Made by a program: the position numbers and the translations under genes. From Rhodobacter viridis (GTDB taxonomy: Bacteria > Pseudomonadota > Alphaproteobacteria > Rhodobacterales > Rhodobacteraceae): 64,000 nucleotides of DNA. How positions within the stretch are numbered: the stretch's first letter is position 1; each line of letters opens with the position of its first letter. The stretch spans positions 496,001 through 560,000 of the forward strand of contig NZ_QJTK01000001.1 of assembly GCF_003217355.1 (NCBI RefSeq). The letters run 5' to 3'. Of the stretch, positions 4,073-64,000 are shown piece by piece. Under the pieces are notes generated by a model, which worked only from the letters and a program-made list of their open reading frames with translations, had not been told where the DNA came from and ran no database searches.

Positions 4073-5075
4073 CTTGCGCCCCGTTCGAGAAGAACTTGTC
4101 CGAGGGGTCTTTCTTTTGCTTGTTGCGATCAAGGCCGATGAACAGAACGATGTTCTTCGCGACATAGACCGAGGAATAGGTGCCGGTGAACACGCCCCAG
4201 ACCATCGCGAAGACGAAGCCGCGGATCACGTCGCCGCCCCAGATCAGCATCGGCACCAGCGCCAGCAGCGTCGTCATGCCGGTCATCACGGTGCGCGAGA
4301 GCGTCTCGTTGACCGAGAGGTTCATCACGTCGCGCAGCGGCATCGTCTTGTATTTCACAAGGTTTTCGCGCAGCCGGTCGAACACCACCACGGTGTCGTT
4401 GATCGAGTAGCCGGTGATCGTCAACAGCGCCGCCACCGTCGTCAGGTCGAACTTCAGCTGCAGCACCGCGAAAAGCCCGACCGTCAGCAACACGTCATGG
4501 ATCAGCGCCACCACGGCCCCAAGGGCGAATTGCCACTCGAAGCGGATCCAGATGTAGAACATGATCGCGACGGTCGCGGCCAGAAGCGACCAGATCGCCG
4601 TCCAGACCAGCTCGCCCGAGACCTTCGGGCCCACCGATTCAAACGAAGTGATCTTCAGAGCCGGATCGACGGCGGTCAGCGCGGTCTCGATCTTGTTGAC
4701 CAGCTCCTGACCCTGCGCGCCCTGACCCTGCGCGCCTTGGCCCTGCGCTCCTTGGGCGGTCTCCTGCATCTGGATGCGGATCATCGCCACATGCTGATCG
4801 GCCCGGAAGCTTGGGTCGCGCACTTCGGAAATGATCACATCGCCCAGATCCAGCGGCTCAAGCGCGGACCGATACTCGCCCACGTCGATCGCGGTCGCGG
4901 ACTCGGTGCGGATCGTCGTGCCACCCTTGAAGTCGATGCCGAAGTTCAGCCCGATGATGAACGGCAGCACCACCGAGGCGATCATCAGAGCGACAGCCGC
5001 GCCAAAGGTGGCGAACTGCCAGTGGAAGAAGTCGATATTGGTCTTTTCAGGAACCAGTTTCAGACGGAAAGCCAT
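4059..5075 (-). CDS. secF: Protein translocase subunit SecF
   Basis: Inner-membrane partner of SecD that drives late steps of Sec translocation with the proton motive force. The 338-residue product has an N-terminal helix, a periplasmic domain starting with the FGIDFKGGT signature, and five C-terminal helices that include IHDVLLTVGLFAV and the SINDTVVVFDRLREN motif. The start at 5075 follows GGAGGA. An in-frame ATG at 5120 would overlap secD. A Gln-Gly-Ala repeat sits in the periplasmic domain. Confidence 0.93.
   Translation of the reverse strand: MAFRLKLVPEKTNIDFFHWQFATFGAAVALMIASVVLPFIIGLNFGIDFKGGTTIRTESATAIDVGEYRSALEPLDLGDVIISEVRDPSFRADQHVAMIRIQMQETAQGAQGQGAQGQGAQGQELVNKIETALTAVDPALKITSFESVGPKVSGELVWTAIWSLLAATVAIMFYIWIRFEWQFALGAVVALIHDVLLTVGLFAVLQLKFDLTTVAALLTITGYSINDTVVVFDRLRENLVKYKTMPLRDVMNLSVNETLSRTVMTGMTTLLALVPMLIWGGDVIRGFVFAMVWGVFTGTYSSVYVAKNIVLFIGLDRNKQKKDPSDKFFSNGAQDAKP
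4704..4757 (-). repeat. 15-bp tandem repeat inside secF
   Basis: About three and a half imperfect copies of a 15-base unit (CCTGACCCTGCGCGC on the plus strand) encode a Gly-Ala-Gln-Gly-Gln array in the SecF periplasmic domain. The unit is a multiple of three, so copy-number change would keep the frame. It falls in a region that is normally of variable length in SecF. Confidence 0.75.
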
Positions 5076-13055: not shown

Positions 13056-16000
13056 TCAGAAATCGACCCATTCGCCCCCATCTTCGGAAATGGCCAATGA
13101 GCCGTTGTTTCGGGGGGTTGGTCGGGACACCGGCTTCGGTGTCGGTTTCGCCGCCAGCGCGGGAGGCGGCGCGGCAGCAGGCAGCTTCACGACTTCCGCT
13201 GTCGGGGCCGTGGCGCGGAACCGCGACGTGGTCGCCGTCAAGGCCTGCACCCCCCGGCTGAGAGCCTGTGCGGCCGCCGTGGTTTCCTCGAACATCGCGG
13301 CATTCTGCTGTGTCACCTGATCGAGTTGGATCATCGCGGCATTGATTTCCGACAGACCGCTCGATTGCTCGCGTGCCGAGGCCGCGATCCGCGACACACG
13401 TCCGGCAATGTCATTGACCGAAACAAGAATGCCATCCAGCGCCTGCCCGGTCTGTCCGACAAGGTCGACCCCGACTTGAACATGATCAGACGAGGCGGTG
13501 ATCAGGGTCGAAATCTCTTGCGCGGCGGCCGACGAGCGCTGGGCAAGGGCCCGCACTTCGGAGGCGACGACGGCAAAGCCGCGACCGGCTTCGCCCGCGC
13601 GGGCGGCCTCGACCCCGGCATTGAGCGCCAGCAGGTTGGTCTGAAAGGCGATATCCTCGATCACGCCAATGATGCGTGAAATCTTTTGCGAGGAGTCCGC
13701 GATTTCCCCCATTGCGGATACCGCCTGTTGCACGACCCGCCCCGAGCCCTCTGCGCCGATGCGGGCACGTTCAACCACTTGGTCCGCCTCGGAAATACTC
13801 GCAGACGCCGCGCCGATCGACGAGGTCAGCTGATCGAGCGCGGTCACCGTTTCCGCAAGCGTCGCGGCTTGCCGCTCCGTGCGCTGGCTCAGATCCGACG
13901 CGGCATTGGTGATTTCATTCACTTCGCCATCGATGCTTTGCGCATTTTCGATCACCACCAGCATCGCCGCCGCAAGGGTGCTCGCCGCATTGTTGAAGTC
14001 GGTGCGCAGCTGTTCGTATTCGGTCGGGAAGGTCCTGTCGATCCGGATGCCAAGATCCCCCCGCGCCAACTCCTCGAGCCCGATCCGCAGCGCCTCGACC
14101 ACCCCGAGCTGCTCGGCCAGCATGGTCTCGTTGCGTGCACGCGCGACATCCAGCGCCGATTGCGCCGCGGTGATATCATTGGCGATCAGAACAATCTTGA
14201 GCATGTTGCCCGCACGGTCGGGCACCGGGGTCACGCTGCCCTCGGCCATCACCCGCCCGCCATCGGCGCGGATCAACTCGAACCGGCCGATCACCGGATC
14301 GAGGCGCTCGAGCCGCGACCAGAACCCGGCCAAAGCGCCTTCGCCCTCGATCAGACCAGCGTGACTGCGCCCGATCAGACCCGCTTCGGTCTCGCCCAAG
14401 GCTTCCAGAAGATTGGCATTGCCGCGCGTCACCCGCCCCGCGGGCGAGAATTCAAGCATGAGCTGCGTGCTGTCGAGCGCATTCAAAAGCGCCCGGGTCA
14501 TCCGCAATTCGGTCACATCCCGCCACTCGACGACAAAGCCGAGCTGGGCGCCATCGGGCATGCGGATTTCGGAAAAATCTACGCCATACCGACCTTCGCC
14601 CACCGCCACATCGCGGCGGAACGGCAGTTGCGACGGGTCTTTTAGACGCGCCTCGATCTCGGCCGTCAGCGGGTAGAGCGCGACAAGCGAACGCCCCACC
14701 AGATCCTCGGCCTGCAGATCGGGCTGGCGGATCCGGAAATCCTCCATTTTTGCGGCAACGAGTTTCACCAGCGCCGTATTGACGTAAGTGATCGTCAGAT
14801 CGGCCGTCACCACCATCAGCGCGGCAGAGGAATTGCGAAACGCCGTGCCTTGCACCGTCGCGGCGTGGCGCGTCGCTTCGGAGGCGGCCAATTCGCCGCG
14901 CAGCGCGTCGATCGCCTGCGCGATCTCGCCGACTTCATCCTTCAATGCGGTTCCAGGAACGGTGATCGCATGATTGCCACGGCTGATCAGGTTCACGGCC
15001 CCCGCCAGGCGGTGCAACGGACGAGCAATCCCGAGTGCCATCCAGGTCGAGATCGCGGCCAGAACCGCCACCAGCCCCGCCGCATCAATGCCAAGCTTCC
15101 GGGCGAGCACACGCGCGGGCGCGAAGAGTTCACGGTCGGACTGTTCGACCACCAGCGCCATCGGACGGCCGAACAGCGTCAGCGGTGCATGGACCGCCAG
15201 AACCGAACCGCCGTCGATGCCGGCCTCTTCGATGCGACCGGTTTGTCCAGCCAAAGCCGCGGCAACGGCGGAATTGTCGACCTTGGCGCCGGGTTGCACG
15301 GCCACCTGACCAGCGGGCCCCGGCCGCAACGTCGATTGCAGCTGCCCCGACTCATCCACGAGATAGGTTTGCCCGCTGTCGCCCAGAGATTGCGGCGCGG
15401 CAATCATCTGCATCAGCGGATCAAGACGCACGGCAAAGGCCAGCACGCCCAGCGAAAGACCCTCGGTGCTGTGCACCGCCTGCGCAAGATAGACGACAGG
15501 CTCTCCCGCCGCGCCCACCGTCGTGAAGTCCGAAATCGCGGGCGCATCATCCTGTCGCCCGAGCGCCTGCGCGAAGACCTGGCCTAGCGGTGTTGCCTGC
15601 GCCGCCGGGTCGGTCAGATCGGCCGCGAATTCCGGCCCCTTGCCCATCGAATAAAGCACCCGCCCGCGCGGATCGATGAAGAACAGATCGGCCAGACCGC
15701 GCTCCTTGGACAGCGTCACGAAGCCCGGATGCGCGCGCCGGTGAATGATGCCGAAATCATTGATATCGCCCGCGAAGTCGAGCTTCCAGCGCTCCCCCTC
15801 GGGGTTCGGGTTGGTCTCGACCCAGGCGTGGCGCAGATTGTCGGCCGCCCCCTCGCCCAGCATTTTCCACGCGCCCGAGAAATCGCGCATCAGCCGGGCC
15901 GTGCCCTGGTTGACGGCCATCGCGCGCAACTCCGATTGCACCTGATCTGCCCAGCCCTTCGCCCTCTGCGCGCGCGTCTCCAGCGCATATTCCAGCCGCT

Positions 16001-55208: not shown

Positions 55209-55284
55209 GGGTGATTAGCTCAGTTGGTAGAGCGCCTCGTTTACACCGAGGATGTCGGGAGTTCGAGTCTCTCATCACCCACCA
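55209..55284 (+). tRNA. tRNA-Val (anticodon UAC), site of island integration
   Basis: The 76-base gene has acceptor GGGTGAT/ATCACCC, the D arm AGCTCAGTTGGTAGAGC, and anticodon stem CCTCG/CGAGG around the loop TTTACAC (anticodon TAC). The T arm is GGGAG-TTCGAGT-CTCTC, and CCA is encoded. The gene is intact, but its last 23 bases are the left copy of a 34-bp repeat that recurs at 63107. Confidence 0.95.
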
Positions 55285-55295
55285 TCGCAGCCCGT
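55262..55295 (+). repeat. attL core, 34-bp direct repeat
   Basis: It runs from TTCGAGTCTCTCATCACCC in the tRNA T arm and acceptor, through ACCATCGCAG, to CCCGT beyond the CCA. The copy at 63107-63140 is identical over all 34 bases and differs on both flanks, as expected for a recombination core. Confidence 0.93.
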
Positions 55296-55340
55296 TGATT
55301 TCCATAAGGAATTGCCGATAAAGGCAAATCCGCGCCTCTA

Positions 55341-55364
55341 CTGGTACATAGAGGTGGTACATAT
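55341..55364 (+). repeat. Left copy of CTGGTACATAGA / TGGTACAT integrase arm-site candidate
   Basis: CTGGTACATAGA-GG-TGGTACAT contains two direct GGTACAT units. A near copy, with TGATACAT as second unit, lies at 63021-63042 near the other end in the same orientation. The second unit here reaches the integrase ATG at 55363, so binding could also repress the integrase. Confidence 0.65.
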
Positions 55365-56958
55365 GGGAATCAAAATGCCAGCCCCGGTTCTGATCGGCTC
55401 GACCTACTATCTGCGCGTTCATGTGCCCACTGACGTGGCCCGGAAGGTGCGCGGCAAGAGCGTTTCGGTGCCGGTGGGCGGCACGTCCTGCGCAGTACGG
55501 ATCAATGGCCCGGTGAAGGTGTCACTGCGCACCAAAGACCCCAAGGAAGCCAAGACCCGCTTCGCCGTCGCTCTCGCGGCTTTGGAAGCGCATTGGGAGA
55601 CCGTGCGCAAGGGGCCGCAGCCGCTGACCCACAAGCAGAGCCTCGCCTTGGCCGGGGCGCTGCGGGCGGTCTGGGTCGACGCTTTCGATGAAGAACCGGG
55701 ACGCCCGGAACGCTGGCAGAATGTGCAGGAGGTCAATGCAGCTGCCAAGGCGGGAAGAATGTCGATGCCGTTGATCGGCAAGGACGCGCAGCTTGAGGCC
55801 AGCCTGAACGCACGCTTCGGCCGGATCATGGACGCCTTTCTCGCGCACAAGGGCATCCTCCTTGCGCCCGAGTCACGGCTGCCCCTGCTTCGGCATATCG
55901 CCGATGCCATGGACGATGCTGCGAAGGTGAACGAAGCGAAAGCGCTTGGCGACTATTCCCAGCAGGGCAAGGCATCGCAATATCCCGCGCTGGAACTGCC
56001 GATCACCAAACCCGCGCCCGAACCGTCAAAGCAACCGCCCAAGCTGACCTTCTCGGGCGTCATCGACCTATGGGTTGCAGCCAAGGCGAAAGGCCGGAAT
56101 GCGGCCCCGGTACGCCCAGACACCGAACGCAAGTACCGCCGGGAATGCGCCGAGTTCGTTGCCTTCCGTGGTTCAGATGACATGACCACGGTCACTGCAC
56201 GCGAGGCCGAGGCTTGGCTGAATGCCATGCTGACTGAGGCGAAGCTGTCGAACAATTCCATCCGCCAGCGGTTGCAGAATGTCCGCTCGGTGGTCGAGCA
56301 CGGGCGGCGCCAAAGCCTTGGCGAATTATTCCCGATGGGCAATCCGTTAGAGTTCGTGCAGTTGCCCGAGGCGGCCCCGGTGGCGAGCGATCTGCGCACC
56401 CTGACGCTGGCCGAGGCCGAGGCGATCCTGCGCGCCGCCCGTACCGAAACCCGGCCGGAACTGCGCTGGCTGCCGTGGCTGTGCGCGTATTCTGGCGCAA
56501 GGGTCAACGAGGTGGCGCAACTGACGCCCGGCGATTTCTTCAAGGTCGGCGAGGACTGGTTCTATCGGCTCACAACGATGGGCGGCAAAACGCTGAAGAA
56601 CCGGCACAGCGAGCGCCGAGTGCCTGTTCACCCCGATCTGGTCACCGAGGGTCTGATCGTCTTCGTCGAGAGCCACAGGGAACACCCGGAGGAACGCCTG
56701 TTCCCGCGCCGGTCACAGGGGAACGTGGCCACATGGGTGCGCGAGAAGGTCGGCCTGACGCGCCCCGAACTCGCCCCGAGCCACGGCTGGCGCCACCTCT
56801 TCGAAGACAAGGCGCTGGTCGCCGGAATGCTGGACGCCGCCCGGCTCTATCTGACCGGCCGCTCTGGTGGCGGGTCTGCCGCTGGTTATGGAAAGAGCGA
56901 GGTCATGCTGCCGGGGCTGGCGGCCGAGATGAGGAAGGTGGGGCCTTTTGTTGGCTGA
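55363..56958 (+). CDS. int: Tyrosine-type site-specific integrase
   Basis: Phage-integrase-family recombinase of 531 residues. The N-terminal PVLIGSTYYLRVHVPTDVARK is a DUF6538-like head found in alphaproteobacterial integrases. A core-binding domain (about residues 235-330, LWVAAKAKGRNAAPVRPDTE) and the catalytic domain follow. Catalytic residues are Arg in YSGARVNEVAQL, Lys near MGGKTLKNRHSERRV, His/Arg in SHGWRHLF and a Tyr in the AAGYGKSEV tail. It lies directly inside attL. Start at 55363 or the internal ATG at 55375. Confidence 0.92.
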   Translation: MGIKMPAPVLIGSTYYLRVHVPTDVARKVRGKSVSVPVGGTSCAVRINGPVKVSLRTKDPKEAKTRFAVALAALEAHWETVRKGPQPLTHKQSLALAGALRAVWVDAFDEEPGRPERWQNVQEVNAAAKAGRMSMPLIGKDAQLEASLNARFGRIMDAFLAHKGILLAPESRLPLLRHIADAMDDAAKVNEAKALGDYSQQGKASQYPALELPITKPAPEPSKQPPKLTFSGVIDLWVAAKAKGRNAAPVRPDTERKYRRECAEFVAFRGSDDMTTVTAREAEAWLNAMLTEAKLSNNSIRQRLQNVRSVVEHGRRQSLGELFPMGNPLEFVQLPEAAPVASDLRTLTLAEAEAILRAARTETRPELRWLPWLCAYSGARVNEVAQLTPGDFFKVGEDWFYRLTTMGGKTLKNRHSERRVPVHPDLVTEGLIVFVESHREHPEERLFPRRSQGNVATWVREKVGLTRPELAPSHGWRHLFEDKALVAGMLDAARLYLTGRSGGGSAAGYGKSEVMLPGLAAEMRKVGPFVG

Positions 56959-57100
56959 GCGGATGGAACGGATCTACAGAAAATAGGGGCTCGAGTTCTT
57001 ACCAGTGGTATGATACGACATTCGAGCGGCAAATCGCTGTGCGGATCACATCCCCGCAGCACCCTCTAGGAAACGCGAAAGTTCGACGAAGGCTTCGGAA

Positions 57101-58249
57101 ATGAAAGTTGCTGGCCTCTTTGCGGGAATTGGTGGGCTTGAGCTTGGCCTCGCGCGCGCGGGGCACCATTCCGTTCACCTGTGCGAAATATGGGAGCCAG
57201 CGCGCGCCGTTCTTCAGAAGCAGTTTCCGGGCGTGCCGCTTTCTCCAGACATCAGCAAGCTTGAGGATCTGCCTGAAGATACCGAGATTCTGGCGGCAGG
57301 TTTCCCCTGCCAGGACTTGAGCCAAGCAGGTCGGACGCATGGGATCGAGGGCTCGCGTTCTGGCCTTGTGTCCAACGTTTTTCGCCTCATCGACAAAAGG
57401 CGCGTGCCGGTAGTTGTCTTGGAGAACGTGTCCTTCATGCTCCAGCTCAATCGCGGACAAGCGATGACGCGACTTGTGGAGGCGTTTGAGGAACGAGGCT
57501 ATCGCTGGGCCTATCGCGTCGTCAATTCGCTGGCATTCCTGCAACAGCGTCGGGAGCGGGTCTTCCTTGTCGCCACTCTGAATGACATTGATCCGCGCGA
57601 TGTTCTGTTTGCGGATAACGCCGAGTGGCCCGAACAAACGACGTCGCTGGAGACCCACGCCCACGGGTTTTACTGGACTGAAGGCACCCGGGGCCTCGGC
57701 TGGGCGCCAAACGGGATTCCGACACTGAAAAACGGGTCGACAGTTGGTATTTCATCACCGCCCGCAATCCTGCTTCCGAATGGCAACATCATCAAGCCGG
57801 ACATTCGAGACGCCGAGAGGCTTCAGGGCTTCGAACCTGGCTGGACGGCCGCCGCAGAGTCGGTTGACAGAAGCTCTTTCCGTTGGTCCCTGGTCGGAAA
57901 TGCGGTGACGGTCCCAGTTGCCGAATGGCTGGGCAAGCGCTTGGCTGAGCCGGGGAAATGCGACAGAGAACGCGAGCGGCCCTTGGCAGATAACACCCGC
58001 TGGCCAAAGGCTGCCGCCGGATCCGACCTCGGACGGCTTGCGGTAGAAATTGGAAGCGCACCGCTCTATCGGGAACGCGCCGATCTGCACGAGTTTCTGA
58101 ATTTCCCCGGCACACCACTCTCAAGCAGAGCGACACGGGGCTTTCTTAAGCGTGCAGAGAGCAGCTCGTTGCGGTTCGCCCCGGGCTTCTTGGATCGCGT
58201 TCGGGCTCATCTGGACACGATGGAGCCGCTGTCAATCGCCGCTCAGTGA
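57101..58249 (+). CDS. DNA (cytosine-5) methyltransferase
   Basis: Type II C5 methyltransferase of 382 residues. It shows motif I LFAGIGGLELGLARAG, motif IV GFPCQDLSQAG with the catalytic Cys near residue 73, motif VI ENV, motif VIII QQRRERVF, a short target-recognition region (about residues 195-240) and motif X LVGNAVTVPVAEWLG. It overlaps tail-to-tail with the endonuclease candidate. Recognition site not predictable. Confidence 0.93.
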   Translation: MKVAGLFAGIGGLELGLARAGHHSVHLCEIWEPARAVLQKQFPGVPLSPDISKLEDLPEDTEILAAGFPCQDLSQAGRTHGIEGSRSGLVSNVFRLIDKRRVPVVVLENVSFMLQLNRGQAMTRLVEAFEERGYRWAYRVVNSLAFLQQRRERVFLVATLNDIDPRDVLFADNAEWPEQTTSLETHAHGFYWTEGTRGLGWAPNGIPTLKNGSTVGISSPPAILLPNGNIIKPDIRDAERLQGFEPGWTAAAESVDRSSFRWSLVGNAVTVPVAEWLGKRLAEPGKCDRERERPLADNTRWPKAAAGSDLGRLAVEIGSAPLYRERADLHEFLNFPGTPLSSRATRGFLKRAESSSLRFAPGFLDRVRAHLDTMEPLSIAAQ

Positions 58250-59088
58250 TGTACGAACCGGGTGGCGTAGAGTTGCGCAATCCGAAGGATCATTGAATCG
58301 TAATAGAGATTGTCGCCGGGCTGTGGAGCGGGCGGTGCAGTCACGAGTGAGACCGGATGGCCGTCATTTCTGCAATCGACAAGAACAGCCGCCAGCGCAT
58401 CGAACCCCTCGCGACCTGTTGCCGAACGTCTCGGAAGCTCGCCAACCTTCTCAAGCACCCGCTCAGTGACGCCTGGTTGACGATGGATGTTGAATGGGCG
58501 TGCACCTGATGCGTCTGGAGCCTTGCCGGGACTGATGAAGCTGTCCGCAAAGTTCACGACCACCAAACCCACCGCGATTGCCTCATCCGTGGCACCATGA
58601 ATCGTCAGATGCGAGGAATTGAGTTCGTCAAACAGCCTCGGCCGCGCTTTCACATGTTCAGTCATGCACGCCTTGGCTTCAAGCGCGACCAGAACGGATC
58701 CGACGGGCGCTTGTCTGAGTGACGGCAATTCGTTGAGCTGTGCCTGTTCTTCAGGGGTCAGCACGATGCCGTAGGGTTCAGCCAAGGCGTCAAATGTCGG
58801 AAGGCTGCTCTTAGGAGAAGCCGCGCCAACGCACAGAACGAGATCGAGATCCTTTTTCCGGTTTTGCTGAAAATCTCGCATCTCGTGATTGATGCCGAAA
58901 TACACTTTCCCCTCGGACACGTGTTTGCGAAGCAGCGGACAGTTCAGGAGCAGGTCGAGCATGACCAGCCAGCACGCCTTTTTGGAATGGTCATCGCTGC
59001 GACTATGATATTGCCACATTGACCCGTCAGCTTTGCTCTTGACCGATGGGATACTCAAAGAACGGGCAAAAGCTTCGGGGCCAATCAT
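58243..59088 (-). CDS. Type II restriction endonuclease candidate (PD-(D/E)xK)
   Basis: A 281-residue protein without a named family that I can give. A possible nuclease core is visible: Asp in DLDLVLCVGA (near residue 80) and the Glu/Lys pair in VLVALEAKACMTEH (near 135), giving D-x(n)-ExK. RPRLFDELNSSHLTIHG follows. The gene is convergent with the methyltransferase; the two stops overlap by seven bases, the usual R-M neighbourhood. No C-protein gene is seen. Confidence 0.68.
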   Translation of the reverse strand: MIGPEAFARSLSIPSVKSKADGSMWQYHSRSDDHSKKACWLVMLDLLLNCPLLRKHVSEGKVYFGINHEMRDFQQNRKKDLDLVLCVGAASPKSSLPTFDALAEPYGIVLTPEEQAQLNELPSLRQAPVGSVLVALEAKACMTEHVKARPRLFDELNSSHLTIHGATDEAIAVGLVVVNFADSFISPGKAPDASGARPFNIHRQPGVTERVLEKVGELPRRSATGREGFDALAAVLVDCRNDGHPVSLVTAPPAPQPGDNLYYDSMILRIAQLYATRFVHH

Positions 59089-59201
59089 GAAAATCTCTCG
59101 GCTTGTTCAGATTCAAGCACATACAACCAGAGATGGCCCGATTCCAAAAGCAGATTGCGCACAGTGGCCTGAGCTGTCGACTCGTGACCTGGTTCAACCG
59201 A

Positions 59202-59229
59202 GCGGCCGGGGTGTTGCTGCCCCGGCCGC
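59202..59229. repeat. Perfect GC hairpin between the two island operons
   Basis: GCGGCCGGGG, eight bases, CCCCGGCCGC. No T-run follows on either strand. It lies between the endonuclease start and the next terminator, so it may be an operator or a structural element. Confidence 0.5.
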
Positions 59230-59244
59230 CTCATGTGTGGCGAT

Positions 59245-59285
59245 GAAAACGCCCAAATAGGTGTTCTTACTACATGGGCGTTTTC
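59245..59285. terminator. Terminator after the ParB-like gene
   Basis: GAAAACGCCCA (59245-59255) pairs with TGGGCGTTTTC (59275-59285), an 11-pair stem with A/T ends and a 19-base loop. It lies four bases beyond the stop of the ParB-like gene and would work in both directions. Confidence 0.8.
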
Positions 59286-59289
59286 GTGC

Positions 59290-60162
59290 TCAGAACTGGG
59301 GTTCTGGGTCGTCGTCTTCCGCGCGAAGGGTCAGCGCTTCTTCACTCGCCTTGCGCAGCGCGGCCCAGTCATCTACGGCTTCCTCGCTGCCGAGAAGATA
59401 ACCGAACATGTGCTTGATCGTGTTCTCGCCCAAGGCCACGCAGATCGCTTCCCAGATCGCCTGTTCTTCTCGCAGGATCAACCGATCCGGGTTCTTGCGG
59501 CGATCAAGCAGATCGCGCAGATCCCCCGCCAGTTTGTCGATTTCGGCATTGCGCTGGGCCTCGCTCAGCTGCCAGACCTCATCTTCCGCGCCGGGGACGC
59601 GCGTTCGCCTGTCCCATGCCCAAGAGCCGGTGATCTCGATGCCCTCCTCATGCATCACCTTGAACCGTGCCCGCATGTTGTCCACGGTGCTGCCCGCAAC
59701 GTCTGCCCAGGCGGCGATCTCTCGGACCTTGTAGCGGGGCTTCTCCGGCTCGCGCACAAGCCGCCATGCGGCGTCCATTCGTTCCACCTGAGAGAGCCCC
59801 CGCGTCCGCTTCGAGTTCGCCTTGAGCGCCGCTCCGAGGGCCTCCCTGCGGCCCATGCCGATCAGAATAATGGCCGGGATCGGCTGCGACCACTGAACCG
59901 AACGATAGGCGGCCAGCCGGTGCGCACCGTCGAGCAGGATCAGCACGCCCTCGGCCCCGATCTCGTCGGCTTGCGTTTGCCAAAGGAGCACCGGATCGAG
60001 CGCGCCCCCGGTGTTGCGGATCGTGCTGGCAAGATCGGCCGCGTGAACCCCATCCGTGCCCCCGGAGCGGAAGCTGAATTCAGCGCTCTCGGTGATCTGG
60101 TCGAGGCTCACGCTCGTGGCGACGGAGCCCGGTTTCGCCGTGATCGGTTGCATCATCGTCAT
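59290..60162 (-). CDS. ParB/Srx N-terminal domain protein
   Basis: A 290-residue protein. The N-terminal domain (about residues 15-110) has the ParB/sulfiredoxin pattern LILLDGAHRLAAYRS, where ParB has the nucleotide-binding GxxRxxA box. It continues with LKANSKRTRGLSQVERMDAAW and a helix-turn-helix (YKVREIAAWADVAGSTVDNM, about 150-170), then a charged helical C-terminus. No ParA partner is present, so classical partition is unlikely. The start at 60162 overlaps the RNase H-like stop (ATGA). It is the last gene of a three-gene unit. Confidence 0.78.
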   Translation of the reverse strand: MTMMQPITAKPGSVATSVSLDQITESAEFSFRSGGTDGVHAADLASTIRNTGGALDPVLLWQTQADEIGAEGVLILLDGAHRLAAYRSVQWSQPIPAIILIGMGRREALGAALKANSKRTRGLSQVERMDAAWRLVREPEKPRYKVREIAAWADVAGSTVDNMRARFKVMHEEGIEITGSWAWDRRTRVPGAEDEVWQLSEAQRNAEIDKLAGDLRDLLDRRKNPDRLILREEQAIWEAICVALGENTIKHMFGYLLGSEEAVDDWAALRKASEEALTLRAEDDDPEPQF

Positions 60163-60701
60163 GCGGGCTCTCCTTTGATAAATTTCACGTTGCGCGTCTT
60201 TCGTTGCCCACGCGCTTTCACGGCAAGCCGGTGAGCCTCCTCCTGAAGCGGGCCGCCAGAATGCCCGCTCGCGTGCAGAAATGTGACATTCAGGCCGTTG
60301 CAAAGTTCGATGATCTCCTGCCACAGATCGACGTTTCCGATCTTCTCGCCTTTGCCGTTGCACCACCCCTTGGCAATCCATCCGGGCAGCCACTCGGTCA
60401 TGCCCCTGACGATGATCTGTGCGCCGCAAACAATGAAGATCGGCAGCGCTTCGTCGAGCTTGATCTGTTTCAGCCCCTCAATCACCGCCACCATGTCCAT
60501 GCGGTTGTTGGTAGTCTGGGCATCACCGCCGGTGCGGTCCATGCGTTTCGCAAGTTCGCCGTCGATGTAGCGGCACAGGATTGCGGCGTGACCGCCGACT
60601 TCGCTTTGGGTTTGGCAAGAACTGCCGGTGTAGATCACGATGCAGGTGGGCACGGGCGGCAGGGCCGCAGTCATTGCTTTGTTCAAAGGTTCGTCCTTCA
60701 C
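60159..60701 (-). CDS. RNase HI-fold protein with a degraded active site
   Basis: A 180-residue protein that aligns along its length with RNase HI: IVIYTGSSCQTQ, TTNNRMDMVAVIEGL, IIVRGMTEWLPGWIAKGW, NVDLWQEI and ASGHSGGPLQEEAHRLA. The four catalytic acids of E. coli RNase HI (D10, E48, D70, D134) correspond here to Gly, Asp, Gly and His, so hydrolysis as in RNase H is not expected. The fold may be kept for nucleic-acid binding. It overlaps both neighbours by four bases. Confidence 0.8.
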   Translation of the reverse strand: MKDEPLNKAMTAALPPVPTCIVIYTGSSCQTQSEVGGHAAILCRYIDGELAKRMDRTGGDAQTTNNRMDMVAVIEGLKQIKLDEALPIFIVCGAQIIVRGMTEWLPGWIAKGWCNGKGEKIGNVDLWQEIIELCNGLNVTFLHASGHSGGPLQEEAHRLAVKARGQRKTRNVKFIKGEPA

Positions 60702-61357
60702 TGGAGTTGAGAAATCGCGGTGGCGAGCCGCTGTTTCGCCTCGGTCGCGGCCTTGCTGTCGCGCGCGTCAAGATCTGCCAGACGCAGCCCGATGGCCCCG
60801 AAAGCGGTCATCAGCTTGCGCCCGAGAATGGCCGCCGCCTTGGGCGTCATCTCGCGGTAGATGCGGACCTGCTGGCCCGTCCGGTGATCGTAGCGCAGCC
60901 CGACATGGCGGCTCGACAAGGCCCGAACGCGCCGGGCGATCTGGACCCGCAAGGCGTCATCGGTGCGAAACCGCAACGGCCGGTCGTGCCACATCAGCAC
61001 CATAGCCAGAACCGTCGCGATCACCGTGGCCGGTGAAACGTCCTGCGCAATGGACACGATCTCGTTTGCGGCGCTGCGCTCATAGCGGTTGCCGATGCGG
61101 CGGCTGGCGGTGGCCCCGGCCTCGGCGACGATGCTGGCCCAGATCTCCTCCATCAGGGGCCAGGTCTCGTTGGTGGGGTTTCTGGCGATCCGCGCTTCGA
61201 TCCGCGCGAGATAAGGCGCCAGTTCGGTTTTGGTAACGCCGCTCTGATCGGGCGCACCGTGCCGCCGAAGCGTTCTCTTGTGGCGGCGGCAATGGGGGGA
61301 GAAGTCGGATGCGGCGGGGCTGCCGCAGTTCGGAACGGTGCAGATGCGCGCGGTCAT
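60698..61357 (-). CDS. Cys/His finger protein of unknown function
   Basis: A 219-residue protein. The N-terminus ICTVPNCGSPAASDFSPHCR continues to RHKRTLRRHG, giving C-x4-C-x12-C-x2-H, like the small zinc fingers at the head of phage and HNH-associated proteins. The rest is mostly helical and basic, with ALRVQIARRVRALSSRHVGL and a conserved-looking TPKAAAILGRKLMTAFGAIG near the end. No known catalytic motif. First gene of the operon with the RNase H-like and ParB-like genes. Start at 61357; the frame is open to 61477. Confidence 0.65.
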   Translation of the reverse strand: MTARICTVPNCGSPAASDFSPHCRRHKRTLRRHGAPDQSGVTKTELAPYLARIEARIARNPTNETWPLMEEIWASIVAEAGATASRRIGNRYERSAANEIVSIAQDVSPATVIATVLAMVLMWHDRPLRFRTDDALRVQIARRVRALSSRHVGLRYDHRTGQQVRIYREMTPKAAAILGRKLMTAFGAIGLRLADLDARDSKAATEAKQRLATAISQLQ

Positions 61358-62130
61358 GGCGTGACCTCGCGGCTGCCGGGTCGAGAGGGGGTGTTGTGGT
61401 TCAGGTGGATCTCCTTGGATTTGTAGCCACCCCCAGAGAGACAGGGACGGTTGGCTATGCGATTGCGTCTGGGTCATGGCGCCGATTTTCGTGCGGTGCC
61501 TCCAATGGCGAGGTGGAAATGTCGCGCCGGACGCTCGACGGGTGGTTTCGCCCCTGCCGGGGCATCATCAGCGGGGCGGCCTCAGCCCCGGACCTCGCTG
61601 AAACCGCTCTCACGGCTTGCCCTTCACGCATTGGATTGCGACCATCGGGCCAGAGGCATCCACCCCCGTCTATCTTGCGGTGGCCCCGTGACGTGGGTCA
61701 GACGCGCCAGCCATCCGGGCCGACCTCGGCCGCCGCGAAGTCGGAAAGAGCGGTGCCCGACGCGGAAAACCCGGCGGGCGATGGGGAGTTTGAAGCAGTG
61801 CCGAGGGCCGCAGCATCGCCCGGAAATCAGGCTATCTGCGGGAAGAGCCGCTGCGCGGTGGGCAGGGCTGGTTGCGGTTCGGTCGTTGCGGTCGGCCTGT
61901 TCCAGAAGGAAGGAGCCGTGGGGGTGCACCGGGCATAATGCGCCCGGGGAGCATGCTTATGACGCAGCACGCTCCAGCGCGCAAGAACTATTTTTCAACA
62001 AAATCATGGCGTTGACGCAAAAAATAGAAAATCTACTGCGAAAACGCCCGATAGCTCTTTGGCATCATGGGGTTGGCCGGTCGCGCCGCTGCGCCTGTGC
62101 CCGGATTTGCGCCCGAGCCCGGCCTGTCGC
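61358..62130. other. Island stretch without a convincing gene
   Basis: About 770 bases between the finger-protein start and the resolvase stop. Long frames exist on both strands (for example 61451-62182), but they lack ribosome sites, domains and plausible composition. Notable items are a CCGGGC/GCCCGG hairpin at 61929-61947 and an unusually A/T-rich patch at 61983-62056 (TTTTTCAACAAAATC, GCAAAAAATAGAAAATC) that stands out in this GC-rich DNA. It could hold the operon promoter, an origin-like or recombination site, or gene debris. Confidence 0.5.
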
Positions 62131-62712
62131 TCATGCCTCGGTCGTTGTTTCCGCGGCTGTCCCATCGCCAAGAATACGATAGACGCTGGCCCGACCGATT
62201 CCCAAACGCTTGGCGATCTCGGTGCCGCCGATGCCTTCCGCGTGCAGCCGCAACACCTCGTCGGCCTTGGCGCGGGCGGTGGGGGCACGGCCCTTGTATT
62301 TTCCTTCGGCCTTCGCCTTGGCGATCCCCTCGCGCTGGCGCTCCAGCATGATCTCGCGCTCGAACTCGGCCACGCCGCCGAGGATCGTCAGCATCAGCTT
62401 GCCGGTGGGCGTCGCGGTGTCGATGCCCATGGACAGGATGCGCAGCGCCACGCCCTTCGCCTCAAGCTGCCCCAGAATGCCCACCAGATGCGCCACAGAG
62501 CGCGCCAGACGGTCAAGCTTGGTGACGACGAGCGTATCCCCTTCCCGCGCGAAGGCCAGCGCCTCGGCCAGCTGCGCGCGGCTGACGACGTCAACCGAGG
62601 AAACCTGCTCAACAAAGATCCTCTTGCAACCGACGGCATCCAGATCGCGCCGCTGGGCGTCGAGCCCGGCTTTCTGGTCGAGGGTCGAGGTGCGGGCATA
62701 TCCGATCAGCAT
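62131..62712 (-). CDS. Serine recombinase (resolvase/invertase family)
   Basis: A 193-residue small serine recombinase. The catalytic Ser9 lies in YARTSTLDQKAGLDAQ, the active-site arginines in LVVTKLDRLARSVAHL, the long E helix in EFEREIMLERQREGIAKA and a C-terminal helix-turn-helix in GGTEIAKRLGIGRASVYRIL. It resembles Tn3-type resolvases, but no transposase or inverted repeats are seen. It faces away from the right end of the island. Confidence 0.92.
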   Translation of the reverse strand: MLIGYARTSTLDQKAGLDAQRRDLDAVGCKRIFVEQVSSVDVVSRAQLAEALAFAREGDTLVVTKLDRLARSVAHLVGILGQLEAKGVALRILSMGIDTATPTGKLMLTILGGVAEFEREIMLERQREGIAKAKAEGKYKGRAPTARAKADEVLRLHAEGIGGTEIAKRLGIGRASVYRILGDGTAAETTTEA

Positions 62713-62727
62713 GGGGCCTCTCCAAGT

Positions 62728-62823
62728 CGTCTCACAATGTCTTAGACGTTCTCAGCCACACCGTCCCAAATGTCAACGACAACTTCTGTGAGACGCAATT
62801 CGGGCGAGGCCGAGACGTCTCAC
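62728..62823. repeat. TGTGAGACG repeats upstream of the resolvase
   Basis: CGTCTCACA (62728-62736), its inverse TGTGAGACG (62787-62795) and the palindrome GAGACGTCTCAC (62812-62823) lie within 100 bases of the resolvase start. Spaced, inverted and clustered, they could be resolvase (res) subsites or operators. Confidence 0.5.
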
Positions 62824-63020
62824 TAGACCATGCCCTGCGAGACGCGCCCGGCAGTGGAGGACGCGGGCCGTGCTGATCGGGCCGGTAGTTCTGGCGAGGA
62901 TCGCTAACCGGGAAAGGTCAAGCAGACGCGGACCCCACCGGGGGGAACCACGCGGCATCCGCTGTCGAGGGCTGACCTCTCAGATTTTTCCGCCGAAATC
63001 CTCGGGCAAGCCTTTGACGA

Positions 63021-63042
63021 CTGGTACATAGACCTGATACAT
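63021..63042 (+). repeat. Right copy of the integrase arm-site candidate
   Basis: CTGGTACATAGA-CC-TGATACAT matches the left copy at 55341 in 19 of 22 positions and has the same orientation. It lies 64 bases inside the right att core. Confidence 0.65.
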
Positions 63043-63106
63043 CCGAACCATCCGAGGCGCCGGAAAATCCTTTGAAATCAATGTATCGTCAGGTGAGCGG
63101 GCGGAC

Positions 63107-63140
63107 TTCGAGTCTCTCATCACCCACCATCGCAGCCCGT
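63107..63140 (+). repeat. attR core, 34-bp direct repeat
   Basis: Identical to 55262-55295. Only the 3' part of tRNA-Val is present here (from the T arm onward), so this is the remnant end and the functional tRNA gene is at the left side. Confidence 0.93.
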
Positions 63141-63142
63141 GA

Positions 63143-63191
63143 GACCTGATCCTGACGACGCCCCCCGCAATGCGATCTGCGGGGCAGGTCT
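63143..63191 (+). terminator. Displaced terminator of tRNA-Val
   Basis: An inner stem CCCCGCA/TGCGGGG (63163-63169 and 63178-63184) and an outer stem AGACCTG/CAGGTCT (63143-63149 and 63185-63191) are followed by TTTTG. It begins three bases after the att core, where the terminator of an uninterrupted tRNA-Val gene would be. Confidence 0.78.
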
Positions 63192-63272
63192 TTTGTCGGA
63201 CCGGGGCCGAAGCGGCCGGATCGCAGTCGCCTGCCCCCTTGCCCGCGCGCAGCAGGAATGAGACAAGCGCGC

Positions 63273-63890
63273 ATGACCGAAATCATCGCCGAAAACCCCG
63301 TCGAACATACTTTGCTGGATGACGCCCAGGGCCTGGCCTATGGCACAACGATGGCCGCTTTCGGCATCGTGCTGCTGACCCATCTGGGCTTGGTGACCGG
63401 GCAGACAGCGGGGCTTGCGGTGCTGATTTCCTACGCCACCGGCTGGGGCTTCGGGCCGGTCTTCTTCGCGATCAACATCCCCTTCTACTGGTTCGGCTAT
63501 CGCCGCATGGGGCTGGCTTTCGTGATCAAGACCTTCCTCTCGGTCGCGGCGCTCTCGGCCTTGGCGGCCTTCTTGCCCGGCTATGTCAGCTTCGCCAACG
63601 TCAACCCGATCGTCGGCGCGGTGATCTTCGGCTTCCTCTCCGGCTCGGCGCTGCTCGCGCTCTTCCGCCACGGGGCGAGCCTTGGCGGTGTCGGCATCAT
63701 GGCGCTCTATCTGCAAGACAGGACCGGCTTTCGCGCCGGCTGGACGCAGCTGATCTTTGATGCCTGCGTCTTCGGCATCGCGCTCACCCTGCGTGACTGG
63801 AAGACGGTCGCGATTTCGGCACTGGGCGCGCTCGTCATCAACATCGTCATTGCGATGAACCACCGCCGTGACCGCTATATCGCGACCTGA
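63273..63890 (+). CDS. YitT-family membrane protein
   Basis: A 205-residue protein with five to six helices. The start HTLLDDAQGLAYGTTMAAFG and the central LVTGQTAGLAVLISYATG, plus a second glycine-rich HGASLGGVGIMALYLQ, fit the YitT/DUF161 family. Function is unknown; some members are treated as transporters. The start at 63273 is preferred over 63258 because of family length; the ribosome site is weak. Paralogous to the next gene. Confidence 0.82.
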   Translation: MTEIIAENPVEHTLLDDAQGLAYGTTMAAFGIVLLTHLGLVTGQTAGLAVLISYATGWGFGPVFFAINIPFYWFGYRRMGLAFVIKTFLSVAALSALAAFLPGYVSFANVNPIVGAVIFGFLSGSALLALFRHGASLGGVGIMALYLQDRTGFRAGWTQLIFDACVFGIALTLRDWKTVAISALGALVINIVIAMNHRRDRYIAT

Positions 63891-63929
63891 TCCGTTGACA
63901 GGACAGCAATTGTGACGCATATTCACGTC

Positions 63930-64000
63930 ATGAGTGCTGACCCATCTGCCCGCCGCTACACGCCCTTCGAAGATGCCCAGGGCCTTGTGCTCGCCTCGGC
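63930..64000 (+). CDS. Second YitT-family gene, cut by the window edge
   Basis: An ATG at 63930 opens MSADPSARRYTPFEDAQGLV and continues to the window end. FEDAQGLVLAS aligns with LDDAQGLAYGT of the preceding gene, so this looks like a tandem paralogue. Only about 23 codons are visible. Confidence 0.55.
   Translation, partial: MSADPSARRYTPFEDAQGLVLAS

What the first reader, a model, noticed from the sequence alone, without database searches (positions are those of the whole stretch)
55262..63140. Compact 7.9-kb island in tRNA-Val with exact 34-bp att repeats
Both ends are visible: the 3' end of an intact tRNA-Val and a second identical 34-base copy, with an integrase immediately inside. The cargo is a restriction-modification pair and an unnamed three-gene operon, without transfer or replication genes. 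This is the size and layout of small defence or satellite islands.
Basis: seen in the sequence. Interest (0 to 1): 0.75.

Follow-up and report, generated by a model that had tools for sequence, protein, structure and literature searches.

The report
Small mobile defence island in tRNA-Val
A 7.9-kb mobile DNA island sits in a valine tRNA gene of a Rhodobacter and carries a probable restriction-modification pair on a three-gene mobile chassis (integrase, orphan ParB-like protein, resolvase) that recurs at other tRNA genes of related bacteria with different, often anti-phage, cargo and has no name that I could find.

Summary
tRNA-Val(TAC) is intact, and its 3' end recurs as an exact 34-bp repeat (55262-55295 = 63107-63140). 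A close relative has a related island at the same site with type I restriction; R. capsulatus DSM 1710 is empty there. The 14 best ParB relatives in an order-wide sample all lie within 6 kb of a tRNA gene, with an integrase in each locus and, in 12, a small serine resolvase within 1.2 kb; weaker hits mostly lack this. Sixteen of 21 loci are bounded by a repeat of the tRNA 3' end (4.3-11.1 kb); the smallest holds only integrase, ParB and resolvase. Nine of 17 elements carry a recognised or candidate defence gene. I found no description of this chassis. The window's RNase HI-like protein has lost three of four catalytic acids (the fourth is E to D) yet shows dN/dS 0.41. Transfer and the role of ParB are inferred. 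New variant of a known kind: compact tRNA-borne defence islands.

The parts
55209..55284 (+). tRNA-Val (anticodon TAC), intact; integration target
   Evidence: Rfam tRNA 70.5 bits
55262..55295 (+). left att repeat (attL), 34 bp identical to the right copy
55340..55362 (+). left arm-like repeat ACTGGTACATAGAGGTGGTACAT, probable integrase arm site
   Evidence: 20 of 23 bp shared with 63020-63042 (D5); present at both ends of the G009 island
55363..56958 (+). tyrosine integrase, 531 aa (DUF6538 N-terminus, phage-type integrase)
   Evidence: R380, R477 and Y509 in 21 of 21 aligned relatives, K412 in 20 and H474 in 18; dN/dS 0.11 against G009
57101..58249 (+). DNA cytosine-5 methyltransferase, 382 aa; cargo
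   Evidence: Pfam 3e-44; PADLOC type II MTase 1.1e-152
58243..59088 (-). putative restriction endonuclease, 281 aa, convergent with the methyltransferase; cargo
   Evidence: no family hit; 53-54% identical relatives on Rhizobium and Sinorhizobium plasmids, the Rhizobium one beside vsr and dcm; 'DLDLV..ALEAK' looks like a PD-(D/E)xK core (recalled motif)
59290..60162 (-). orphan ParB-like protein, 290 aa; shared chassis gene
   Evidence: PHROG ParB 7.6e-05; family profile hits ParB/Spo0J/Noc structures, best 5.6e-08
60159..60701 (-). RNase HI-like protein, 180 aa; catalytic D10, E48, D70, D134 read G, D, G, H
   Evidence: Pfam 8.5e-19; residues; dN/dS 0.41 against another altered copy
60698..61357 (-). 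zinc-finger plus helical protein of unknown function, 219 aa
   Evidence: dN/dS 0.16-0.20; AlphaFold mean pLDDT 77.9, no PDB match at E<=0.001
61541..61760 (.). conserved non-coding block upstream of the operon
   Evidence: 95.5, 94.5 and 85.8% identical in three other islands, slower than synonymous sites of the next gene; no Rfam match there; not folded better than shuffles (z 0.26)
62131..62712 (-). small serine recombinase (resolvase/invertase), 193 aa; shared chassis gene
   Evidence: Pfam Resolvase 1.4e-42 plus HTH_7
62713..62860 (-). probable res site: repeated GAGACG/CGTCTC motifs upstream of the resolvase
   Evidence: seen in the sequence and partly conserved in three relatives; inferred
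63020..63042 (+). right arm-like repeat ACTGGTACATAGACCTGATACAT
63107..63140 (+). right att repeat (attR)

Best explanation
It is an integrated, non-self-transmissible mobile island. Its integrase joins an excised circle to the 3' end of tRNA-Val, restoring the tRNA and leaving the 34-bp repeats (SHOWN: ends, catalytic residues, an empty and a differently filled site in relatives; INFERRED: present-day activity). It belongs to a family of compact islands whose recurrent chassis is tyrosine integrase + orphan ParB-like protein + small serine resolvase, and which carry exchangeable cargo, often anti-phage systems (SHOWN by sequence). Here the cargo is a probable type II restriction-modification pair that would cut incoming DNA and penalise loss of the island (INFERRED from families). 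The most likely role of the ParB-resolvase pair is upkeep of the excised or incoming circle: the resolvase turns multimers into monomers at the res-like site, and ParB, a probable CTP-dependent DNA clamp, segregates the circle or represses the element's genes (INFERRED). RNase HI may help an R-loop step in members where it keeps its catalytic residues; here it probably acts, if at all, as a binding protein (INFERRED). Transfer must be by a helper such as a transducing phage or by natural DNA uptake (INFERRED).
For: Repeats and intact tRNA. Same site with different cargo, or empty. The best place in each of the 14 top-scoring other genomes of an order-wide ParB search, picked by ParB similarity alone: tRNA in 14 of 14, 1.0-5.8 kb from ParB; integrase in 14 of 14; resolvase in 13 of 14 loci, in 12 of them 0.1-1.1 kb from ParB. 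A 15th strong hit, from the class search, has tRNA-Phe + integrase + ParB + resolvase. Control: 14 of the next 20 weaker class hits, tRNA in 1 of 14, integrase or resolvase in 0 of 14. Both ends found in 16 of 21 loci. Cargo-free minimal element L186. Defence cargo.
Against: No reads or PCR show excision. ParB and resolvase roles rest on family membership; no parS site was identified. The other 16 places of the order search mostly lack the chassis: tRNA in 3 of 16, resolvase in 4, integrase in 3. L066 has integrase, RNase HI-like, zinc-finger and resolvase genes but no ParB and no tRNA beside its integrase. Eight of 17 elements have no recognised defence gene: none or unknown cargo in seven, glycosylation genes in L190. 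There was no matched control for cargo.
Confidence: 0.62

Rival explanations
1. The island is a phage satellite, moved by a helper phage that it hijacks; ParB, resolvase and the zinc-finger protein are its replication and packaging-control genes.
For: Size and tRNA site fit. An IMG/VR contig (L253) has resolvase, zinc-finger, ParB and integrase genes next to small and large terminase, portal, protease-capsid and head decoration genes. Paracoccus phages have a ParB-like gene near terminase with methyltransferases ('ParB-Tls locus', PMC6536676, passages).
Against: No terminase, capsid or replication family among the window's seven genes, nor among the cargo proteins of other elements that I scanned; short ORFs were not scanned. 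In L253 the phage genes lie beyond the integrase, and a 16-bp repeat (4697 and 16964) suggests a separate neighbouring element. The ParB gene has no hit in 50,697 phage records.
Confidence: 0.2
2. The excised form is a true low-copy plasmid with an unrecognised initiator (the zinc-finger protein) and origin (the conserved non-coding block); ParB partitions it and the resolvase resolves dimers.
For: Plasmid-type stability genes; block conserved beyond synonymous sites; RNase HI-like gene in some members.
Against: Clear zinc-finger relatives were found in 6 of 28 loci scanned; the order search gave only three marginal further hits (E 4e-4 to 8e-4) and the plasmid search one. No plasmid hit for ParB or the block. 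The minimal element L186 has no candidate initiator.
Confidence: 0.15
3. The island is an immobile relic: the RNase HI is probably inactive and the right flank is rearranged.
For: Catalytic residues altered; right flank not the one of three relatives.
Against: Integrase, resolvase and zinc-finger genes are open and under purifying selection (dN/dS 0.11-0.28); the repeats are exact; arm repeats conserved.
Confidence: 0.15

Closest known systems
Phage defence elements of Vibrio (Hussain et al. 2021, Science 374:488; not read, seen only as cited in PMC12595487, of which I saw passages)
   Same: Small islands with recombinase, defence cargo and no transfer genes
   Different: Known to me only by recall and that citation; an orphan ParB + serine resolvase core is not something I recall or found described for them
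tRNA/tmRNA genomic islands as catalogued in Islander (PMC4383910, start of abstract seen)
   Same: Tyrosine integrase, restored tRNA, displaced tRNA fragment marking the far end
   Different: A catalogue by integration site; as far as I saw it does not define this gene core
Tycheposons and other small tRNA-borne elements (named in PMC11389934, passages seen; gene content recalled)
   Same: Compact, tRNA-targeted, tyrosine recombinase, hitchhiking transfer suspected
   Different: Different hosts and core genes; no ParB-resolvase pair that I know of
Orphan ParB-like proteins surveyed in PMC12704722 (passages seen)
   Same: ParB-CTPase fold without ParA, a divergent branch enriched on mobile elements
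   Different: The main text has no occurrence of resolvase, recombinase, integrase or RNase H
ParB-Tls locus of Paracoccus phages (PMC6536676, passages seen)
   Same: ParB-like protein together with DNA methyltransferases in Rhodobacterales mobile DNA
   Different: Lies beside phage terminase in full prophages, often fused to a methyltransferase; the window island has no terminase, and its ParB is a separate protein

Membership tests
tRNA-targeted integrative genomic island | intact tRNA, integrase, direct repeat of tRNA 3' end at far end | tested here: met
tRNA-targeted integrative genomic island | empty or differently occupied site in relatives | tested here: met
tRNA-targeted integrative genomic island | excises as a circle | not testable with these tools
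   needs PCR or reads
ICE / IME | relaxase or conjugation genes | tested here: not met
   no such family among the seven genes; an oriT was not looked for
Phage satellite (PICI, cfPICI, P4-like) | replication, packaging-hijack or capsid genes | tested here: not met
   none among the seven genes; the zinc-finger protein is of unknown function
Phage satellite (PICI, cfPICI, P4-like) | induced and packaged by a helper phage | not testable with these tools
   needs induction experiment
Type II restriction-modification | cognate methyltransferase and endonuclease side by side | tested here: inconclusive
   methyltransferase certain; endonuclease inferred from context and a relative beside vsr and dcm; its single-sequence model was poor (pLDDT 43.4)
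Tyrosine recombinase | catalytic R-K-H-R-Y | tested here: met
   (motif recalled)
Ribonuclease HI (active enzyme) | DEDD acidic residues | tested here: not met
   G, D, G, H in the window protein (positions recalled)
ParB-CTPase fold | profile match to solved ParB proteins | tested here: met
   CTP binding not tested
Small serine resolvase | Resolvase catalytic domain plus HTH_7 | tested here: met
   res site inferred only

The most novel reading that the evidence does not exclude
An undescribed family of minimal mobile elements, whose whole core is integrase + orphan ParB clamp + serine resolvase (down to 4.3 kb), inhabits tRNA genes across Rhodobacterales and is a general vehicle for anti-phage systems. 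Its accessory RNase HI has repeatedly been turned into a non-catalytic but selected protein, pointing to a non-enzymatic RNase H function in mobile DNA.
Probability: 0.45. Interest if true: 0.72.

Novelty: new variant of a known kind. Interest (0 to 1): 0.56.

Why it matters
Small islands without transfer genes carry much of bacterial anti-phage immunity, and how they persist and move is open. A shared three-gene chassis, with a cargo-free natural minimal form, would give a tractable model: which of ParB and resolvase is needed for excision, upkeep or capture. It also gives a handle (the ParB gene) for finding such islands and new defence genes in the cargo slots, and a set of naturally altered RNase HI proteins with which to ask what an RNase H fold does without catalysis.

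Tried and rejected
Structured RNA for the conserved block: not supported (no Rfam match there; z 0.26; only 2 of 62 pairs with double changes in 4 sequences).

Fold of the zinc-finger protein: no PDB match at E<=0.001. Fold of the endonuclease: single-sequence model too poor to search; no relatives confirmed among viral contigs or in 294 other genomes sampled from the family.

Block and ParB in plasmids and phages: no match for the block in plasmids or for ParB in plasmids and phages. DNA 59200-63140 against phages matched 8 records, only over short stretches of the resolvase gene, in Mycobacterium and Streptomyces phages. Exact block pattern in viral contigs: none. Block in 390 order genomes: besides the window only short weak matches (23-59 bases) in 10 genomes.

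The idea that most ParB hits in the class belong to this family: rejected for the 14 that I looked at.

Papers: eight searches gave nothing in the listed titles and abstract openings that names an integrase-ParB-resolvase island family. Passages of seven papers were seen; PMC8224337 (Rhodobacteraceae prophages) and PMC11476347 (Sinorhizobium tRNA hot spots) do not contain the words ParB or resolvase in their main text, and PMC3710099 uses RNase HI, ParB and resolvase in other contexts in the passages shown. The library holds only open PMC papers, so this is weak evidence of absence.
Full report
CHECK OF THE OBSERVATION. ARAGORN finds tRNA-Val(TAC) at 55209-55284. The repeat finder and a direct comparison give 34 of 34 identical bases at 55262-55295 and 63107-63140; extended leftwards, 37 of 38. 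The span from the end of the tRNA to the end of the right repeat is 7,856 bp, G+C 62.2%; G+C per kilobase lies mostly between 0.60 and 0.70 in the window, with the lowest values, 0.593 and 0.580, over the restriction genes. Seven genes fill it: integrase, cytosine methyltransferase, putative endonuclease, ParB-like, RNase HI-like, zinc-finger protein, serine resolvase.

IS IT MOBILE? The window lies in G000:C1; 18 genomes of the genus, this one included, were used. Four of the 18 have metA followed directly by tRNA-Val: G000, G009, G011, G014. G009 (largest contig 3,738,958 bp, the size I recall for R. capsulatus SB1003; recalled, not shown) carries an 11.1-kb island there. It shares with the window the integrase (90% aa), ParB (69%), RNase HI-like (49%), zinc-finger (94%) and resolvase (97%) genes, but has hsdR, hsdS and hsdM instead of the type II pair, in a different slot. 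G014 has an integrase beside a right repeat on one contig and metA-tRNA-Val followed by other DNA on another; that these are two ends of one element is inferred. G011, whose contig size matches the record of R. capsulatus DSM 1710, is empty: from base 51 of the tRNA its sequence aligns 93.8% over 6.8 kb with G014's right repeat and what lies outside it. So the site is empty, or filled with different cargo on the same chassis.

A CAVEAT ABOUT THE RIGHT END. The DNA outside the window's right repeat (YitT gene) is not the flank of G009, G011 or G014. The block upstream of YitT in G011 lies about 200 kb away and reversed in the window genome, and the flank of the G011 site gave no substantial match in it. 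A chromosomal rearrangement has its breakpoint at or near the island's right end. The 11 repeat bases beyond the tRNA (TCGCAGCCCGT) correspond to the island side in G009 (CGCAGCCCAT), where the shared core is only 23 bp; this may reflect an earlier tandem insertion, but I could not settle it.

ANATOMY. The integrase keeps R380, R477 and Y509 (21 of 21 aligned relatives), K412 (20) and H474 (18) (catalytic motif recalled). Arm-like repeats lie inside both ends and are found at both ends in G009. The methyltransferase is certain; its partner has no family, but relatives of 53-54% identity exist on Rhizobium and Sinorhizobium plasmids, the Rhizobium one beside vsr and dcm, so a type II restriction pair is the best reading. 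Upstream of the resolvase lie repeated GAGACG/CGTCTC motifs that look like a res site (inferred). A 220-bp block upstream of the operon is 95.5, 94.5 and 85.8% identical in three other islands, while synonymous sites of the neighbouring zinc-finger gene differ by 15, 33 and 55%. It is not folded better than shuffled sequence, so I call it a conserved DNA element, perhaps the ParB site, operator or origin.

THE RNASE HI-LIKE PROTEIN. Of 12 uninterrupted relatives that lie beside ParB or other chassis genes, four keep D, E, D, D (L065, L177, L178, L179) and eight do not (window, L066, L067, L190, L259, L260, L261, L263); L190 and L259 look the same in the segments shown, and L260 and L261, which differ mainly by D/E exchanges, are alike, so the eight are not eight independent events. 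A thirteenth, L069, is interrupted by a stop. Window and L066 share the altered first motif, so much of their divergence probably follows the loss; their dN/dS is 0.41 (bootstrap 0.27-0.60, no replicate at or above 1), with no stops. That argues for a retained role without the usual catalysis, though constraint is weaker than on the integrase (0.11). The ParB and RNase HI-like genes have higher synonymous divergence from G009 (dS 0.78, 0.92) than zinc-finger and resolvase genes (0.17, 0.19), so this pair may be exchanged as a cassette.

THE CHASSIS ELSEWHERE. A five-sequence ParB profile, built from genus islands, was run against 390 genomes of the order: 28 genomes had a match, the window's own included, in 30 places besides the window. 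I took the best place in each of the 14 top-scoring other genomes. Each fetched stretch (9-18 kb) holds exactly one tRNA gene (14 of 14), 1.0-5.8 kb from ParB. An integrase is present in 14 of 14, next to the tRNA in 12 and at the other end in L178 and L185. A small serine resolvase is present in 13 of 14 (not seen in L183, cut by a contig end), 0.1-1.1 kb from ParB in 12 and 8.1 kb away in L179. These 14 come from 12 genera by handle. The remaining 16 places were examined too, some on short contigs: tRNA in 3, resolvase in 4, integrase in 3, an RNase HI-like neighbour in 4; I read many of these as ordinary ParB genes. A 17-sequence profile against 318 genomes of the class matched 88, the window's own included; apart from the window one hit is strong (G604, 2.9e-41) and the rest are 1.2e-12 or weaker. 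G604, of another family, has tRNA-Phe, integrase, ParB and resolvase, and a 21-bp tRNA repeat. As a control I took 14 of the next 20 places in that list: 1 of 14 has a tRNA and none an integrase or resolvase match; four of these stretches were shorter (4.8-13.7 kb) because of contig ends. Fisher's test for tRNA, 15 of 15 against 1 of 14, gives 2e-07.

ENDS AND CARGO. In 21 loci tested, 16 have a 16-34 bp repeat of the tRNA 3' end at 4.3-11.1 kb: window, L065, L067, L068, L069, L178, L180, L181, L182, L184-L190; none in L073, L074, L177, L179, L183. In L068 the repeats bound one element and the ParB lies beyond them with a second integrase, a likely tandem. Leaving L068 aside and adding L177 and L179 (one end only) gives 17 elements. 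Nine have a recognised or candidate defence gene: type II pair (window), type I (L065, L067), MmeI-like (L177), type ISP (L180), Mrr (L185), DRT2 (L179), and two PADLOC candidate systems, HEC-01 (L069) and PDC-M55-like (L189). Three have no recognised cargo: L178, L182, L186. Four have cargo of unknown function: L184, L187, L188 and L181 (GHKL ATPase with a weak TmtA match). L190 carries GtrA-like, methyltransferase and glycosyltransferase genes. I had no matched control for cargo. L186 (4.3 kb) holds integrase, ParB and resolvase plus two short ORFs, so these three are the candidate minimal core.

A LEAD TO PHAGE-LIKE ELEMENTS. One IMG/VR contig has resolvase, zinc-finger (39%), ParB and integrase genes like the window's, next to terminase, portal, protease-capsid and decoration genes. 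A 16-bp repeat that reads, in reverse, like a tRNA 3' end occurs at 4697 and 16964, one copy inside an integrase ORF, and no tRNA was found on the contig, so the two parts may be neighbours rather than one element. A ParB-like gene near terminase is known from Paracoccus phages (PMC6536676, passages). This keeps the satellite reading open.

HOW IT LIKELY WORKS. Shown: site, ends, gene content, exchange of cargo, constraint on the core genes. Inferred: integrase-driven excision and insertion; host protection by restriction; ParB and resolvase as keepers of the circular form, or ParB as regulator; helper-dependent transfer. The finding is a new variant of a known kind: compact tRNA-borne defence islands are known, while this core was not named in the papers I could find. 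I saw passages of PMC12595487, PMC11389934, PMC12704722, PMC6536676, PMC8224337, PMC3710099 and PMC11476347; other papers were seen only as listings with abstract openings.

Noticed in passing
63141-64000 and L255 (G000:C1:345000-361000): The right flank of the island is rearranged: the block upstream of YitT in G011 sits reversed about 200 kb away in this genome, beside a gene that reads by eye like a sugar epimerase; a large inversion or several events may share a breakpoint with the island end.
   Followed up: partly
61541-61760: Non-coding block more conserved than synonymous sites in four islands, unexplained; a 33-base piece has a weak inverted match (E 0.001) near the resolvase of L178.
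   Followed up: partly
L066 6975-7760: In the R. capsulatus DSM 1710 island the place of ParB is taken by a reading frame with a CxxC zinc-ribbon-like motif; its C-terminal 142 aa had no Pfam hit, and no tRNA lies next to the integrase.
   Followed up: partly
L253 (IMG/VR contig): The same chassis with the zinc-finger gene lies next to terminase, portal and capsid genes and two further integrase genes.
   Followed up: partly
L259, L260, L261, L263: RNase HI-like and ParB-like genes are neighbours also where the full chassis is not seen; their acidic residues are partly replaced (for example D, D, E, E).
   Followed up: partly
L179 11221-12738: A DRT2-type reverse transcriptase lies between the ParB/RNase HI genes and an integrase at tRNA-Leu.
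   Followed up: no
14263-14358: ARAGORN calls a tRNA-Gln of 96 bases on the minus strand, unusually long; possibly a false call.
   Followed up: no
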